A stretch of DNA of 64,000 nt from Pontibacillus sp. HMF3514. GTDB taxonomy: Bacteria; Bacillota; Bacilli; Bacillales; BH030062. The stretch covers positions 2,232,001 to 2,296,000 of the forward strand of contig NZ_CP047393.1 of NCBI RefSeq assembly GCF_009858175.1, read 5' to 3'. The position numbers and the translations under genes were made by a program. The notes below the pieces were generated by a model. The model made no database searches. It was not told the DNA's origin and saw only the letters and a program-made list of their open reading frames with translations. Positions 3,730-60,331 of the stretch are shown one piece after another (the first letter of the stretch is position 1; each line of letters begins with the position of its first letter).

Positions 3730-4060
3730 AGTGCTTTTAAACGAGGAACGTTAAAGGCATGGATAAAACCCGGTATTAAAGAATATTCATATTGAACTTT
3801 TTACGGTAAAATCATCTGGCATCCTGTGAAAACATTGAAATGTTCCTTATTTTCACTGGCACGACCGAGGAGTCGTAAGGATGAAAGAGAGGTAGGGCTT
3901 TCATTATTTAAGGTTTTCTTAGCGAAGCACAGAGATCTACCGCGGCAGCAATAAATAGATAGCGGAGACAACCGCTTATAAATAAGAACAAACATGATTT
4001 GAAGTAAAACCATATGAATGAACAATAAGGCGAATCCGTTTATCGGGTTCGCCTTTTCCA
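3730..4060 (+). ncRNA. Candidate non-coding RNA ending in a terminator
   Basis: About 330 nt lie between the promoter above and a hairpin at 4029-4053 (GGCGAATCCG / CGGGTTCGCC, loop TTTAT) followed by TTTT and then TTTTTT. Internal complementary arms include ACGAC/GTCGT (3861-3876), GATGAAAG/CTTTCAT (about 3880-3904), ATCTA/TAGAT (3935-3960) and AGCGG/CCGCT (3961-3976). There is no ribosome site with an ORF on this strand. I compared it from memory with RNase P, tmRNA, 6S, SRP RNA, T-box, SAM, lysine and c-di-GMP elements and found no match. An 86-codon ORF on the other strand has no family resemblance. Confidence 0.35.
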
Positions 4061-9096: not shown

Positions 9097-9300
9097 AAGG
9101 CGCAAGCTCCCGTATAGCGACGTATATGCTGGACTGAGCCGCAGTAAGATAAAGGAAACACGAAGAACGAAGTGATTCGATGTTGACTTATCTTACGGAT
9201 AAGAATGATCGACTAAGTTCGTCACGTCCTGTGACAACGTCGATCTGACCCACGTCGTGTGGTCCCAAGCATACTAGTTGCTGGGCGCAGGAGCTAGACA
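9097..9300. repeat. Structured intergenic element with nested inverted repeats
   Basis: The gene-free span 8950-9348 holds a long imperfect inverted repeat. Outer arms are AGCTCC (9105) and GGAGCT (9290), continued by a 15-nt pair at 9116-9130 and 9268-9282 (about 11 of 15 matches). Inside are a perfect pair GTAAGATAA / TTATCTTAC (9144/9188), a hairpin GTCAC/GTGAC near 9221-9235, and GACC/GGTC arms near 9247-9264. It has no ORF and looks like the multi-hairpin intergenic repeats scattered through Bacillaceae genomes. Whether it is transcribed or mobile cannot be told here. Confidence 0.5.
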
Positions 9301-56004: not shown

Positions 56005-56204
56005 TCTACTCTTATGTCCGTTAGCTAAAGTATATTTCTTTGCAATCTTATTTAAATTTTAACACAAATATCCAGTTAATAACTTACTCCATTATTCGAT
56101 CAGGACAAATAAAAAGGCTTTCCTTATTCCTGGAAAGCGCCCGTTTGCTAAAAACTTGAATTCGAGATAAATTGCAAATAAGATATTCAACTAACGCACC
56201 CGTT
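56005..56204. repeat. Array spacer C (complete, no gene), ending at the IS110 insertion point
   Basis: CTTATGTCCGTTAGCTAAAG (GTTAG 56020-56024); TTTTAACACAAATATCCAGTT (56057-56077); CGATCAGGACAAATAAAAAG; hairpin CTTTCC/GGAAAG and CGCCC (56118-56142); AACTTGAATTCGAGATAA (about 56153-56170); CAACTAACGCACCCGTT ending 56204, where the IS110 copy begins. Two sites thus bound a 185-bp gene-free unit. Confidence 0.78.
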
Positions 56205-56206
56205 CG

Positions 56207-56212
56207 TATTAT
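56207..56212 (+). promoter_or_regulatory. -10 half of a circle-junction promoter (copy 1)
   Basis: TATTAT at the left end. The right end carries TTGACA at 57815-57820. Joining the ends through one GTT puts them exactly 17 nt apart, giving a strong promoter only in the excised circle. Confidence 0.7.
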
Positions 56213-56214
56213 AA

Positions 56215-56440
56215 GGTTAGCCAGAATGCTAATTATTTCTGGTTGACCTTATTTTATATGGTCTTATTATAGCAGTAGCCAGGGTAGAACGTAAGCACCC
56301 GTGGGACTTAGATCCCGTCAGTTAAACCGTTCACCCCCTACTGGTAGAAACATGTTTAAGGCTGGTTGGGACTGACATGAGATCTCGTATAACAAGCGAA
56401 GCTATGATACTACTAGGAGGAGTTAGGGGTTACTGGCAAG
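56215..56440 (+). ncRNA. Candidate IS110 bridge RNA, copy 1
   Basis: Begins with a stem-loop (GGTTAGCCAGAA / TTCTGGTTGACC). A second stem (GTAGAAC / GTTC...CTAC) encloses GCACCCGT at 56295-56302, identical to the left flank at 56196-56203, and TTAAACC at 56322-56328, complementary to GGTTTAA across the right border (57832-57838). A later loop holds GCTGGTT (56361-56367), identical to the element's right end. The order target loop then donor loop is as known for IS110 bridge RNAs. 3' end not defined. Confidence 0.7.
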
Positions 56441-56464
56441 TAGAATTTAAGGAGGAGATATAGA

Positions 56465-57700
56465 ATGAATCCAGTTGTTGGTCTGGATGTTTCAAAAGGA
56501 GAAAGTGAAGTTCAGGCATTTCTAGATAAGGGAAAACCTTACCTTAGAAGCTTTAGTATCAAACATGACCTTGATGGGCTACGATCATTACTCGAGTTTC
56601 TGGAAGATTTAAAAAATAAAACAGGAGCACAACCTTCGGTTGTGTTGGAAGCAACTGGACATTACCATGCACCTGTGGTTCAGTTTCTAGAGGAACATCA
56701 GTATTTATTAATCATTGTCAATCCATTGATCTCACATAGAGCCAAAAGCTCTAGTTTACGAAAAGTAAAAACGGATGCCATTGATGCCTATCGTCTTTGT
56801 GAGCTTTACTATAAAGAAGATTTAGAGCCATATAAGAAACGAGGGATTCAACTTTTGAATCTTCGTAATCTTACAAGACAACATGAGAATATTACAGGAA
56901 TGTACGCGCAAACCAAGCTACAATTTCAAGCAGTTCTTGATCAAGTATTCCCTGAATACAGAGGCGTTTTTGGGGACTTATACTCAGTTGTGTCTTTGCG
57001 TATTCTACAAGAGTATCCAGCATCAGAAGATATTTTAACAATTAGTGATGATGCGTTGGCGAATAGAATAAAAGAATTATGTAAAAGTCGTTCGAAAAGA
57101 TGGGCGGTAGAAAAATCCCAAAAGCTAAAAGCAGCAGCTGCGAGAAATCCATTTCAAAAGACACTATATCAGAGTCATTTATTAAGTCTTAGTATGTATA
57201 TAAATATGCTTATTCAATACAAAGAGCATCTATCAGAGTTGGACGCTGAGATAGATACTCTCGCTAAAGAAATTGAAGAATATAAGATTATCCAATCTAT
57301 CCCTGGTATTGGAGAAAAGATCGCGGCAACGATCATTTCTGAAATTGGAGAGATAGATCGGTTTAATCACCCAAAAAAGCTTGTAGCATTCGCTGGAGTA
57401 GATCCAGAGGTTTTCGAGTCAGGGAAATTCAAGGCAAGTCTGGTTCGCATAACAAAACGTGGATCAAGTAGGTTGCGTCATGCCTTATATATGGCTGTTC
57501 GTTCTGGTATTCGTGATTGTCGCAAACAGAAAACCACGGATGAAATCATCCCTAGAAACAAAAAATTAAGAGCGTTTTACGATAAGAAGCGAGAAGAAGG
57601 CAAACTTTATAAAGTAGCCGTTATTGCTTGTGTAAATAAGCTCTTACATTGGATTTATGCCATATTAAAAAACAGAACCACTTTCCAAGATATAGCCTAA
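56465..57700 (+). CDS. IS110-family recombinase (copy 1)
   Basis: The 411-residue enzyme has an N-terminal RuvC-like DEDD domain (GLDVSKGE near 6, VVLEATGHYH near 59, KTDAIDAY near 105), a helical coiled linker, and a C-terminal Tnp domain (SIPGIGEKIAATIISEIG near 279, FAGVDP near 307, and ITKRGSSRLRHALY near 325 with the catalytic Ser). It excises and inserts the element under guidance of the bridge RNA. ATG behind AAGGAGGAG. Intact, so possibly active. Confidence 0.93.
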   Translation: MNPVVGLDVSKGESEVQAFLDKGKPYLRSFSIKHDLDGLRSLLEFLEDLKNKTGAQPSVVLEATGHYHAPVVQFLEEHQYLLIIVNPLISHRAKSSSLRKVKTDAIDAYRLCELYYKEDLEPYKKRGIQLLNLRNLTRQHENITGMYAQTKLQFQAVLDQVFPEYRGVFGDLYSVVSLRILQEYPASEDILTISDDALANRIKELCKSRSKRWAVEKSQKLKAAAARNPFQKTLYQSHLLSLSMYINMLIQYKEHLSELDAEIDTLAKEIEEYKIIQSIPGIGEKIAATIISEIGEIDRFNHPKKLVAFAGVDPEVFESGKFKASLVRITKRGSSRLRHALYMAVRSGIRDCRKQKTTDEIIPRNKKLRAFYDKKREEGKLYKVAVIACVNKLLHWIYAILKNRTTFQDIA

Positions 57701-57837
57701 TTAAGATTTTCAAGTAAATAAGGCAAAACCTTCCATTCATTAGTTAGTGGAAGGTTATTTGGCATGCGCACTTTTAGTATAGCATGAAATAATTTAAGTT
57801 TTTATTGAAAAATGTTGACAAACTATTAGCTGGTTTA

Positions 57838-57981
57838 ATACTATAAGGAAAATTTTCCATTAGATATAATAGTTGCATTATGCTATACTAATCTCGCGAT
57901 GAGCTGAATTGCATAAGACGAGATTGACGCGCCTTTATGGCAAGGCACAAATGTGGAGTGCTGTCTCTCGCCGCAATACGC
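57838..57981. other. Right flank of IS110 copy 1, with hairpins
   Basis: TTGACA in the element end is 18 nt from TACTAT (57839-57844) in the flank, a possible outward hybrid promoter. Downstream are GGAAAATTTTCC and AATCTCG/CGAGATT arms. The segment has replaced the normal 3' end of the lipoprotein pseudogene. Confidence 0.4.
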
Positions 57982-58012
57982 AAAGACGTCCTTCATAGGA
58001 CGTCTTTTTTTT
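57890..58012 (+). ncRNA. Possible plus-strand RNA antisense to the lipoprotein pseudogene
   Basis: A strong plus-strand terminator (AAAGACGTCC / GGACGTCTTT plus eight T, 57982-58012) has no plus-strand gene before it. Several short hairpins lie upstream, and TATACT at 57884 or the hybrid promoter at 57815-57844 could start a transcript. Confidence 0.3.
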
Positions 58013-58446
58013 GTCCGTTAATACTTCGAATAAAATAGATGAGTTTTCTTTAGATAATTGAATATATCCTTTTGGTTTAATTATTTCTAACTGTTCTTTG
58101 TTGTCACTAATCCAGACTTGATACATGATTGCTTTTACTTCTGTTTCTGAATTTTTATATTGGCGATAAAAACGATAGTCAGCATTTCTTGGCATATCGA
58201 CTTTTACATTTTCCATTTTATATTATTCACGATATCTTTTACTTTGGCTACACCTTCCGAGTTTAAGATTTCTTGAAGGTCTTTATAATTGTTGTCTTCA
58301 CCAATACGTTTTTGAACAACGATTTTTTGTTCTATATCTTCACTATCATTATTAGGTTCTTTTTCTTTCACAGTATCACTCGAACAACCTACAAGAGCTA
58401 ACAAAAACATTGAAATTAAAGTTATAAATATTTTTTTATATGACAT
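57935..58446 (-). pseudogene. Array gene: frameshifted lipoprotein
   Basis: The first frame (58446-58204) gives a lipoprotein signal (FLLALVGCSS), then EDNNYKDLQEILNSEGVAKV and DIVNNIKW before a stop. The second frame (58216 down) continues ENVKVDMPRNADYRFYRQYK, AIMYQVWISDNKEQLEI and YIQLSKENSSILFEVLTDKK. I know the joined sequence as one Bacillus lipoprotein family (INWEN...DYxF.F.FKN...LWISPNK). Restoring one G at 58213-58214 reconnects the frames. The C-terminus runs on through an unrelated terminator, so the 3' end is also damaged. Confidence 0.78.
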
Positions 58447-58507
58447 TTAATCCCTCCATCTATATATAAAAGGACGTTTTTTTATTATAGAAGTTTCATT
58501 TAAAACC

Positions 58508-58529
58508 TTATTCAACAATTCTGCCCGTT
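58508..58529. repeat. GTTAG-type array site interrupted by IS110 copy 2 (left half)
   Basis: TTATTCAACAATTCTGCCCGTT ends at the element; compare CAACTATGGCACCCGTTAG at 54175. The right half resumes at 60141 (GTTTAGTTTAAGATCATTTC). Confidence 0.7.
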
Positions 58530-58531
58530 CG

Positions 58532-58537
58532 TAATAT
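58532..58537 (+). promoter_or_regulatory. -10 half of a circle-junction promoter (copy 2)
   Basis: TAATAT pairs with TTGACA at 60123-60128; spacing across the joined ends is 17 nt. Confidence 0.7.
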
Positions 58538-58539
58538 AA

Positions 58540-58750
58540 GGTTAACCAGTTTTTACTGGTTGACCATTTTTTATATGGATCTATTATAACAGTAGCCGGG
58601 GTAGAACGTCTCTGCCCGTGGGGTTTGACCCCGTAAACTAAACAGTTCACCCCCTACTTGTAAAAACATGATTTAGCTGGTTGGGACCCTAGATCCCGTT
58701 TAACAAGCGAACCTGTGACATTACAAGGAGGATTAGGGGCACCGGCAATA
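58540..58750 (+). ncRNA. Candidate IS110 bridge RNA, copy 2
   Basis: Stem-loop GGTTAACCAGT / ACTGGTTGACC is conserved with compensatory changes versus copy 1. The target loop holds TCTGCCCGT at 58611-58619, identical to the left flank 58520-58528, and TAAACTAAAC at 58634-58643, the exact reverse complement of the right border GTTTAGTTTA (60141-60150). The donor loop holds TTAGCTGGTT (58673-58682), identical to the right end of the element (60134-60143). Confidence 0.75.
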
Positions 58751-58772
58751 TTTTTTGAGGAGGAGAATTCGA

Positions 58773-60008
58773 ATGAATCCAGTCGTAGGTCTGGATGTAT
58801 CTAAAGGGGAAAGTCAGGTCCAAGCATTCTTGGACAAGAAAAAGCCATATCGTAAGAATTTTAAAGTAGACCACACGCGAGATGGTTTAACGACGCTTCA
58901 CGAATTTTTAAAGCATTTAAAGGAAGTTACGGGTCAAGATCCAGCAATTGTTTTGGAGGCAACGGGACATTATCATGCGCCTGTTGTTCAATTTCTGGAG
59001 GAGCATAATTATTTATTAATCATTGTAAATCCATTGGTTTCTTTTAGAGCGAAAAGCTCTAATTTACGAAAGGTGAAAACTGATGCAGTTGATGCTTATC
59101 TTCTTTGTGAACTTTACTATAAGGAAGATTTAGAGCCTTATAAAAAGCGAGGAGTTCAACTTTTAAACCTTCGTAATTTAACTCGGCAACATGAAAATAT
59201 TACTGGGAACTTTATTCAAACAAAGTTACAGTTCCAAGCTGTATTGGAACAAGTATTTCCTGAATACAAAGGGGTTTTTGGTGAGCTATATTCTTTTGTT
59301 TCTTTACGGATCCTCAAAGAATATAAGTCCTCGGAAGATATTTTAAGGACTAGTGAAGACAGACTGGCAAATCGAATAGCTGATTTATGTACAAGTCGTT
59401 CTGAAAAGTGGGCTTATGAAAAAGCACAAACTCTGAAAGCAGCAGCTGCTCGTAATCCTTTTAAAAAGACACTGTATCAAAGTCACCTATTAAGTATGGG
59501 AATGTATATTGATATGCTTCTTCAATTTAAAGAGCATCTATCAAAGTTAGATGCAGAGATAGATACTCTAGCTAAAGAAATTGAAGAATATAAGATTATT
59601 AAATCTATCCCTGGTATCGGAGAAAAGATCGCTGCCACGATTATTTCTGAAATTGGGGAAATAGATCGATTTAATCACCCTAAAAAGCTTGTGGCTTTTG
59701 CCGGTGTTGATCCAAGTGTGTTTGAATCAGGTCGCTTTACAGCCAGTAATAATCGCATTACTAAAAGAGGTTCTAGTCGCTTAAGGCACGCTTTATATCT
59801 GGCTGTCTGTTGTGCGATTAGAGACAAACGGAAAAAGAAAACAACCGATGAAATACTCCCTAGAAATAAGAAATTGAGAGAATTTTACGATAAGAAACGA
59901 AACGAAGGTAAACCTTTTAGAGTAGCAGTCATCGCTTGTGTTAATAAGCTTTTACATTGGATCTATGCTCTTTTAAAAAGCAGAACTAACTTCCAAGAAA
60001 TAGCTTGA
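58773..60008 (+). CDS. IS110-family recombinase (copy 2)
   Basis: 411 residues, same length and domains as copy 1: GLDVSKGE, VLEATGHYH, KTDAVDAY in the RuvC-like part; SIPGIGEKIAATI, FAGVDPSVF and NRITKRGSSRLRHALY in the Tnp part. The start at 58773 follows GAGGAGGAG; six upstream codons are untranslated. Intact frame. The stretch from about residue 255 to 310 is much more similar to copy 1 at DNA level than the rest. Confidence 0.93.
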   Translation: MNPVVGLDVSKGESQVQAFLDKKKPYRKNFKVDHTRDGLTTLHEFLKHLKEVTGQDPAIVLEATGHYHAPVVQFLEEHNYLLIIVNPLVSFRAKSSNLRKVKTDAVDAYLLCELYYKEDLEPYKKRGVQLLNLRNLTRQHENITGNFIQTKLQFQAVLEQVFPEYKGVFGELYSFVSLRILKEYKSSEDILRTSEDRLANRIADLCTSRSEKWAYEKAQTLKAAAARNPFKKTLYQSHLLSMGMYIDMLLQFKEHLSKLDAEIDTLAKEIEEYKIIKSIPGIGEKIAATIISEIGEIDRFNHPKKLVAFAGVDPSVFESGRFTASNNRITKRGSSRLRHALYLAVCCAIRDKRKKKTTDEILPRNKKLREFYDKKRNEGKPFRVAVIACVNKLLHWIYALLKSRTNFQEIA

Positions 60009-60140
60009 TAACTATATCTGCCTATATAGAACAAAACCTTCCAATATAGTTTTAATGGAAGGTTATTTGGCATGTTCTTTTTTATTTTATCATGTCTTTT
60101 TTCAGTTTTTTATTGAAAAATGTTGACAAACTATTAGCTG

Positions 60141-60331
60141 GTTTAGTTTAAGATCATTTCTTCACAATCTAACTCAAATTTTACTACAAATATCCAGTTA
60201 TTAAATCACTTCATAATTTAATTCATAACATAAAAATAAGACACAACCCTATTTCAGAATTGCGCCCTTTAAATGAAAACTTGATATCAAGATATTCATT
60301 AATGTGGTTCTGCAACTATAGAATTCGTTAG
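60141..60331. repeat. Array spacer D
   Basis: GTTTAGTTTAAGATCATTTC (site, right half); TTTTACTACAAATATCCAGTT (60179-60199); a weak hairpin with TTGCGCCC (60253-60276); palindrome CTTGATATCAAGATAT (about 60280-60295); and CAACTATAGAATTCGTTAG ending 60331. The last GTTAG contains the stop codon of the next gene. Confidence 0.7.

What the first reader, a model, noticed from the sequence alone, without database searches (positions are those of the whole stretch)
56196..60150. Two IS110 elements carry bridge-RNA-like loops that match their own insertion sites
Seen: the left non-coding part of copy 1 holds GCACCCGT, identical to its left flank, while copy 2 holds TCTGCCCGT, identical to its own different left flank. 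The guide changes with the flank. In copy 2 the next loop strand, TAAACTAAAC, is the exact reverse complement of the right border; in copy 1 the match is 7 nt (TTAAACC). Known: IS110 bridge RNAs use a left guide in the sense of the top strand and a right guide complementary to it. Inference: both RNAs are functional guides, and this pair is a natural example of reprogramming.
Basis: partly seen in the sequence, partly recalled or inferred. Interest (0 to 1): 0.88.

Follow-up and report, generated by a model that had tools for sequence, protein, structure and literature searches.

The report
IS110 elements with natural retargeting guides
Two related jumping genes each carry a short guide RNA region whose loops match the different DNA sites they sit in, and most of their relatives in other bacteria show the same, so this looks like a clean and fine-grained natural case of a recently discovered mechanism.

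Summary
Confirmed, with corrections. Both elements are IS110-group insertion sequences (transposases 81% identical) with a bridge-RNA-like fold in the left non-coding end. The left guides match the left flanks as stated. The same genome holds an identical second copy of each element at another site, with a matching (copy 1) or near-matching (copy 2) flank. In 80 usable loci the left guide fits its own flank better than permuted guides do (5.73 vs 4.10 of 6; 0 of 10,000). The right guide does so more weakly. Two-sided pair changes support the fold of 71 left ends. The left guide changed at least 27 times on the transposase tree. One pair of left ends differs by a single guide base, and the flanks differ at that base.

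The mechanism and natural reprogramming were published in 2024. Less expected: a conserved internal promoter-like motif just before the RNA, guides changing about 3 times faster than the scaffold in close pairs, and a lineage aimed at the opposite strand of the same repeat. New member of a known kind; activity untested.

The parts
56203..57836 (+). IS110-group element copy 1, both TT cores included (56203-56204 and 57835-57836)
   Evidence: Empty sites in same-genus genomes; identical element L002 at another site
56196..56204 (+). Left target half GCACCCG plus core TT, in an extragenic palindromic repeat
   Evidence: Sequence; unoccupied repeats of the kind
56205..56212 (+). Copy 1 left terminus; TATTAT at 56207-56212 would be the -10 of a circle-junction promoter with TTGACA of the right end
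   Evidence: Spacing 17 or 18 in 67 of 68 elements with distinct left ends when the ends are joined in a script
56243..56270 (+). Internal promoter-like motif TTGACC-N16-TATTAT, copy 1
   Evidence: Kept at one spacing in 69 of 71 left ends; coordinates read
56275..56437 (+). Predicted bridge RNA, copy 1; ends inferred from the motif and the closing stem
   Evidence: Consensus fold; single-sequence fold z -1.88
56295..56302 (+). Left target guide GCACCCGT, copy 1
56319..56327 (+). Right target guide CAGTTAAAC, copy 1; its last two bases AC face element sequence GT
56358..56367 (+). Left donor guide AAGGCTGGTT, copy 1, like the right end AGCTGGTT
56391..56401 (+). Right donor guide region AACAAGCGAAG, copy 1; GCGAA faces TTCGT of the left end with one G-T
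   Evidence: pairing read by eye
56465..57700 (+). Transposase/recombinase copy 1, 411 aa
   Evidence: DEDD_Tnp_IS110 3.9e-34 (1-155 of 155), Transposase_20 5.4e-25 (2-77 of 87)
57815..57836 (+). Right end of copy 1: TTGACA ... GCTGGT, then core TT
58528..60144 (+). IS110-group element copy 2, both TT cores included (58528-58529 and 60143-60144)
   Evidence: By analogy with copy 1; identical element L004 at another site
58520..58529 (+). Left target half TCTGCCCG plus core TT, copy 2
58560..58587 (+). Internal promoter-like motif TTGACC-N16-TATTAT, copy 2
58592..58746 (+). Predicted bridge RNA, copy 2; ends inferred
   Evidence: single-sequence fold z -2.35
58611..58619 (+). Left target guide TCTGCCCGT, copy 2
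58634..58643 (+). Right target guide TAAACTAAAC, copy 2; its last two bases AC face element sequence GT
58673..58682 (+). Left donor guide TTAGCTGGTT, copy 2, identical to the right end at 60134
58702..58712 (+). Right donor guide region AACAAGCGAAC, copy 2
58773..60008 (+). Transposase/recombinase copy 2, 411 aa, 81% identical to copy 1
   Evidence: DEDD_Tnp_IS110 3.1e-31 (1-155 of 155), Transposase_20 9.7e-25 (2-80 of 87)

Best explanation
Both elements are IS110-group insertion sequences that use a bridge RNA made from their left non-coding end. The RNA has a target loop (left guide like the top strand, right guide complementary to it) and a donor loop for the element's own joined ends. The recombinase joins the excised circle to a site that pairs with the target loop, at a short core with an invariant T. 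The targets are members of a family of extragenic palindromic repeats. Copies differ in guide and accordingly sit in different members of that family. Shown here by sequence: the anatomy, the fold with two-sided changes, guide-flank covariation, the core position from empty sites, and repeated guide change on the tree. Inferred: that the RNA is made, from the internal motif and from the circle junction; that it pairs with DNA; and that guide mutation comes before insertion at the new site.
For: Domains. Identical elements at two sites each. Left guide vs flank: 80 loci, mean 5.73 of 6, permuted 4.10, best of 10,000 permutations 4.51; one locus per guide class (n=18) 5.5 vs 3.59. In 68 distinct left ends, guides without the majority base had the matching flank base in 24 of 25, 29 of 29 and 29 of 32 at positions 1, 2, 3, with the register chosen to fit the guide. 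Right guide: 75 loci, 2.88 of 4 vs permuted 2.29, best 2.6. Independent pairs on the tree, flank register chosen without the guide: position 2, 5 of 5 same way (p 0.0625); position 3, 6 same and 2 without difference (p 0.031). Fewest left-guide changes 27. Fold: 98.8% of cells paired; 11 pairs and 83 cells with two-sided change vs 5.4 and 20.9 shuffled, 0 of 500. Promoter motifs: 67 of 68 at the junction, 69 of 71 internal. Empty sites.
Against: No transcript, pairing or transposition was measured. 12 of 80 flanks fit another guide class better, 8 of these by bases at positions 5-6 as I read the list. Some rare guides do not have their rare base in the flank (L029, L052, L073). Tree-based pairs are few: of the left positions only position 3 passes 0.05; of the right guide, position 1 goes the same way in 3.4 of 4 pairs, position 2 in 3.7 of 7 (C) and 0.6 of 3 (A), none significant. 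In the fold, further pair types do not exceed shuffles (36 vs 34.4, 87 of 500). Donor guides hardly vary, so donor pairing has no covariation support, and the right donor guide pairs only 5 nt with one G-T. Two left ends lack the internal -10 at spacing 16-18 (L071, L083). Copy 1 alone folds only modestly better than shuffles (10 of 200 as good).
Confidence: 0.92

Rival explanations
1. The protein alone recognises a repeat family; the resemblance between interior and flank is family resemblance or shared descent, with no RNA guide.
For: The targets are related repeats with a shared CCC and T, so permuted guides still match 4.10 of 6.
Against: Several rare guides meet the same rare flank (GCCTCC L081, GCACCA L086, GCACCT L048, CTGCTC L030 and L045), though not all do (L029, L052, L073). 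L043 and L048 left ends differ by one base, in the guide, and their flanks differ at that base. The matched bases lie on the two sides of one internal loop of the fold.
Confidence: 0.04
2. The guides are copied from the flank after insertion, so the flank changes the guide and not the reverse.
For: Guides and flanks agree, and guide columns change 2.9 times faster per column than the rest in 23 disjoint close pairs.
Against: Copies with left ends identical to those of other copies sit at sites that differ from the guide by 1-2 bases without the guide following (L004, L019, L033). Copying would have to serve both sides of the loop, once direct and once inverted.
Confidence: 0.03
3. The bridge RNAs worked in the past but these copies are inactive remains.
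For: No expression data. In the integrated state the left flank offers no good -35 for the left-terminal -10 (2 or more mismatches in 68 of 68).
Against: Both reading frames are open, the Pfam domains are complete or nearly so, and each element is identical to a second copy elsewhere in the genome, which suggests recent movement. The internal promoter-like motif is present in both.
Confidence: 0.12

Closest known systems
IS621 and its bridge RNA (Durrant et al. 2024, PMC11208160: abstract, sections 5, 6, 12 and passages seen; Hiraizumi et al. 2024, PMC11208158: passages seen)
   Same: DEDD plus PF02371 recombinase, bridge RNA in the left end, two loops, 5' side pairing with the bottom strand and 3' side with the top strand, core with an almost invariant second T, promoter at the circle junction, targets in extragenic palindromes; bases in the handshake position.
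   Different: Donor core TT and target core NT rather than CT; a conserved internal promoter-like motif just before the folded RNA; repeats of Bacillus relatives instead of E. coli REP.
seekRNA of IS1111/IS110 elements, ISEc11 vs ISXne4 (Siddiquee et al. 2024, PMC11187229: abstract, passages and section 10 seen)
   Same: A change of target by change of the guide between related elements is reported there as natural reprogramming.
   Different: There one pair at 72% protein identity with only 3 of 13 target bases the same; here at least 27 changes on one tree and steps as small as one base.
REP-targeting IS110 elements such as ISPa11, ISPpu9, ISPpu10 (Tobes and Pareja 2006, PMC1525189: passages and table parts seen)
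   Same: Specific insertion into extragenic palindromic repeats.
   Different: The strains named in the passages seen are Gram-negative (my knowledge); the term 'Bacill' does not occur in the main text.

Membership tests
IS110 group of the IS110 family | N-terminal DEDD domain (PF01548) and C-terminal PF02371 | tested here: met
   Both copies above Pfam's cut-offs
IS110 group of the IS110 family | Longer non-coding end upstream of the gene, with the bridge RNA there | tested here: met
   Left ends 260 and 243 nt, right ends about 134 nt (from and the boundaries); fold of 71 left ends
IS110 group of the IS110 family | No long subterminal inverted repeats (these would point to IS1111) | not tested
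   No repeat search was run on the termini
Bridge RNA | Target loop: one side like the target top strand, the other complementary to it | tested here: met
   Left guide strongly, right guide more weakly
Bridge RNA | Donor loop matching the joined ends of the element | tested here: inconclusive
   Left donor guide 6-8 of 8 in 68 left ends; right donor guide 5 nt with a G-T; almost no variation, so no covariation test
Bridge RNA | Promoter formed at the circle junction | tested here: met
   67 of 68, by sequence only
Bridge RNA | RNA is made, binds the recombinase and directs recombination | not testable with these tools
   Needs RNA-seq and assays

The most novel reading that the evidence does not exclude
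This clade is a natural mutational scan of a bridge RNA. It follows a shifting family of extragenic palindromes by small steps: single bases, linked changes of both guide halves when it moves between the GCACCC and GCGCCC repeat classes, and even a flip to the opposite strand of the same palindrome (L005/L006, GGGTGC). Guides evolve faster than the scaffold. Unlike IS621, the integrated copy would make the RNA from a conserved internal promoter, so a resident element could act without first excising.
Probability: 0.45. Interest if true: 0.6.

Novelty: new member of a known kind. Interest (0 to 1): 0.45.

Why it matters
If the reading holds, the clade is a ready natural data set on bridge RNA specificity: which guide positions tolerate mismatch, how core mismatches resolve, and how new targets arise step by step. 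It also offers recombinases from Bacillus relatives with ready-made guide-target pairs and a non-CT core. It does not change what is known about the mechanism.

Tried and rejected
Core GT instead of TT was considered, because the left guides end in GT. It would need GTTTA in the empty site, while 3 of the 6 empty orthologous sites read GTTAATAC (L097, L100, L101), two differ by a substitution (L096, L099) and one has an added base (L098). A one-base core (the invariant T) fits equally well where the target has AT and cannot be excluded. Two right ends (L028, L078) have one T fewer.

Exchange of whole target loops between elements as the way guides change: the loop scaffold of L017 is nearest to L068 and L079 while its protein groups with L015, L016, L018 and L023. 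Too few informative positions to claim it. Handshake pairing of the donor loop with the target was looked at by eye and does not fit most members; the same position in the target loop (AC) fits but does not vary, so it has no covariation support.

Literature: IS642 with Bacillus halodurans gave no paper; a search for Bacillus extragenic repeats gave no listing that I recognised as this repeat. No paper on this clade was recognised in the listings; most subscription journals are not held.

Rows dropped: of 86 same-lineage loci (L001-L088 without L007 and L008), L047, L075 and L085 had no recognisable left terminus; L011, L014 and L027 had N in the left flank; L006, L018, L027, L028, L044, L055, L060 and L078 were left out of the right-guide count; L065, L066, L067 and L070 were left out of the protein tree, and 79 of its 82 rows bear a guide. 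A first guide-extraction pattern failed on all 86 loci and was replaced by an alignment.
Full report
What was checked. Each flank matches the other copy's left end less well, 6 and 5 nt.

What the elements are. Both reading frames are 411 aa, with a full DEDD_Tnp_IS110 match and a nearly full Transposase_20 match, and are 81% identical. The window lies in a 3.98 Mb single-contig genome with eight matches to the copy 1 protein at E up to 0.001: the two window copies, a second copy of each, two at 68-69% and two at 32-33% identity. Copy 1 (L001) and L002 do not differ inside the element, nor do copy 2 (L003) and L004; all listed differences lie in the flanks.

Boundaries. A same-genus search with the sequence right of copy 1, which holds the sRNA BsrF, gave seven hits in six other genomes. 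Six continue leftwards into a related site without the element, such as GCACCCGTTAATACTATAAGG in L097; L102 does not. Comparison with the occupied site gives a shared TT, and right ends read GCTGGT before it. In 68 distinct left ends the last three flank bases are GTT 41, GAT 11, TTT 9, CTT 5, ATT 1 and CCT 1, so the last base is T in 68 of 68 and the one before it is T in 56, A in 11 and C in 1. On the right side the corresponding base is T in the 83 loci found, but my search pattern required it. Unoccupied repeats have both GTT and GAT there. This fits top-strand cleavage downstream of a core whose second T is almost invariant, as reported for IS621 (passages of PMC11208158). The same paper describes handshake guides, RNA bases that pair with the donor top strand in the target loop after exchange. 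By position these should lie next to the core-pairing bases (my inference). Here those bases are AC in 71 of 71 left ends, opposite the GT that precedes the core in the right end.

Guide and flank across relatives. The best 80 of 301 loci were fetched; their titles name Bacillus and relatives, with a few such as Paenibacillus and Ammoniphilus. Of 86 same-lineage loci, 83 had a readable left end and 80 of these a readable left flank. The six variable bases of the left guide match the own flank in 6 of 6 for 63 loci, 5 for 13, 4 for 3 and 3 for 1, with a shift of one base allowed for real and permuted pairs alike. The mean is 5.73 against 4.10 permuted (best of 10,000: 4.51); for 68 distinct left ends 5.69 against 4.08; for one locus per guide class (18) 5.5 against 3.59. 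The own guide is strictly best in 50, tied in 18, and worse than another class in 12. The right guide matches at 2.88 of 4 positions in 75 loci, permuted 2.29, best 2.6. Because relatedness inflates such counts, independent pairs on the transposase tree were used, with the flank register chosen without the guide. Guide and flank go the same way and on average not the opposite way, but numbers are small: position 1, 2.8 same and 1.2 without difference of 4; position 2, 5 of 5; position 3, 6 same and 2 without difference; right position 1, 3.4 of 4; right position 2, 3.7 of 7 for C and 0.6 of 3 for A. Only left position 3 passes 0.05.

Natural reprogramming. The fewest changes of the left guide class on a quick tree of 82 proteins (79 with a guide) is 27. 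The left ends of L043 and L048, compared up to 15 nt before the gene, differ by a single base, in the guide, and the flanks read GCACCC and GCACCT. GCGCCC or TGGCCC guides go with a right guide ending in AAAAC (or AACAC) in three separate parts of the tree (L017; the L068 group; the L082/L054 group), while L010 combines GCGCCC with CATTAAAC. So both halves have changed together more than once, but not always. In 23 disjoint close pairs the 17 guide columns hold 35 differences, against a mean of 12.3 and a maximum of 26 in 143 overlapping control blocks of 17 columns. L005 and L006 in the window's own genome carry GGGTGC and sit at GGGTGC, the opposite strand of the GCACCC palindrome.

Structure and expression. 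The consensus fold of 71 left ends has a 5' hairpin, then a closing stem that holds a target loop (stem 88-95/136-142, inner hairpin 107-111/120-124, guides on both sides) and a donor part. Standard pairs fill 98.8% of cells; pairs and cells with two-sided changes exceed all 500 shuffles and all slid versions, whereas the number of further pair types does not (36 vs 34.4, 87 of 500). Single folds are modest (z -1.88 and -2.35). Two promoter-like motifs are seen. With the ends joined, TTGACA lies 17 or 18 nt before TA[AT]TAT in 67 of 68 elements with distinct left ends. Inside the element TTGACC, TTGAAC or TTGATC lies 16 nt before TATNAT or TAATAT in 69 of 71, 62 of these with 10 of 12 consensus matches. 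With the downstream 30 bases shuffled once per sequence, 29 of 71 still give a scored -10 and 9 of these score 10 or more, so the AT-rich region makes part of this easy; the fixed spacing and the conserved hexamers next to variable columns are the stronger point. That motif would start the RNA near the closing stem in the integrated state. In copy 2 a terminator-like hairpin with a T-run lies between the left terminus and the folded RNA and overlaps the internal -35.

Targets. The repeats read roughly like cttnTTcaactaa(GCACCC or CTGCCC)nnTagttgAAtaag (my summary). Strict searches of the genome found 8 GCACCC-type places at up to 3 mismatches, two of them the occupied sites of L001 and L002, and 3 CTGCCC-type, with 0 for the reversed control in both.

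Comparison with what is known. Bridge RNAs, their covariation with targets in thousands of pairs, the junction promoter and REP targeting are in PMC11208160 (sections 5, 6, 12 read). Natural redirection is in PMC11187229 (section 10 read). REP targeting by IS110 elements was described in 2006 (PMC1525189, passages). In the listings I recognised no description of this clade, of single-base retargeting or of opposite-strand retargeting; that is a statement about those searches only.

Verdict. The worth lies in resolution: a clade in which most elements are their own guide-target experiment.

Noticed in passing
57815-57844: The right end's TTGACA forms a promoter-like pair with the flank (TTGACA-N18-TACTAT), pointing at the BsrF sRNA gene at 57896-58004, so copy 1 may alter its expression.
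   Followed up: partly
G000:C1:2288465-2447668: All eight matches to the copy 1 protein (E up to 0.001) lie within about 160 kb of the 3.98 Mb genome, while target-type repeats are found at several other places.
   Followed up: no
L007, L008: This other IS110 lineage (32-33% identity) also carries GCGCCC inside its left end and at its left flank, and sits beside a repeat with CTTGAATTCGAGAT or near it (read by eye).
   Followed up: partly
L013, both flanks: A direct repeat of 14 bases (AATTGAACAACCCT) flanks the element; the expected left target GCCCCC lies just outside it, as if right flank had been duplicated at the left end.
   Followed up: no
L077, left flank: The element sits next to what looks like the left end of another IS110 element in reverse orientation, at AAAGCACCCG.
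   Followed up: no
L006: No right end was found and the match covers query residues 1-400 only, so the copy looks cut at its 3' side.
   Followed up: no
3831-3917 (-) and 9197-9263 (+): Rfam matches to BsrC and Bacillaceae-1 RNA.
   Followed up: no
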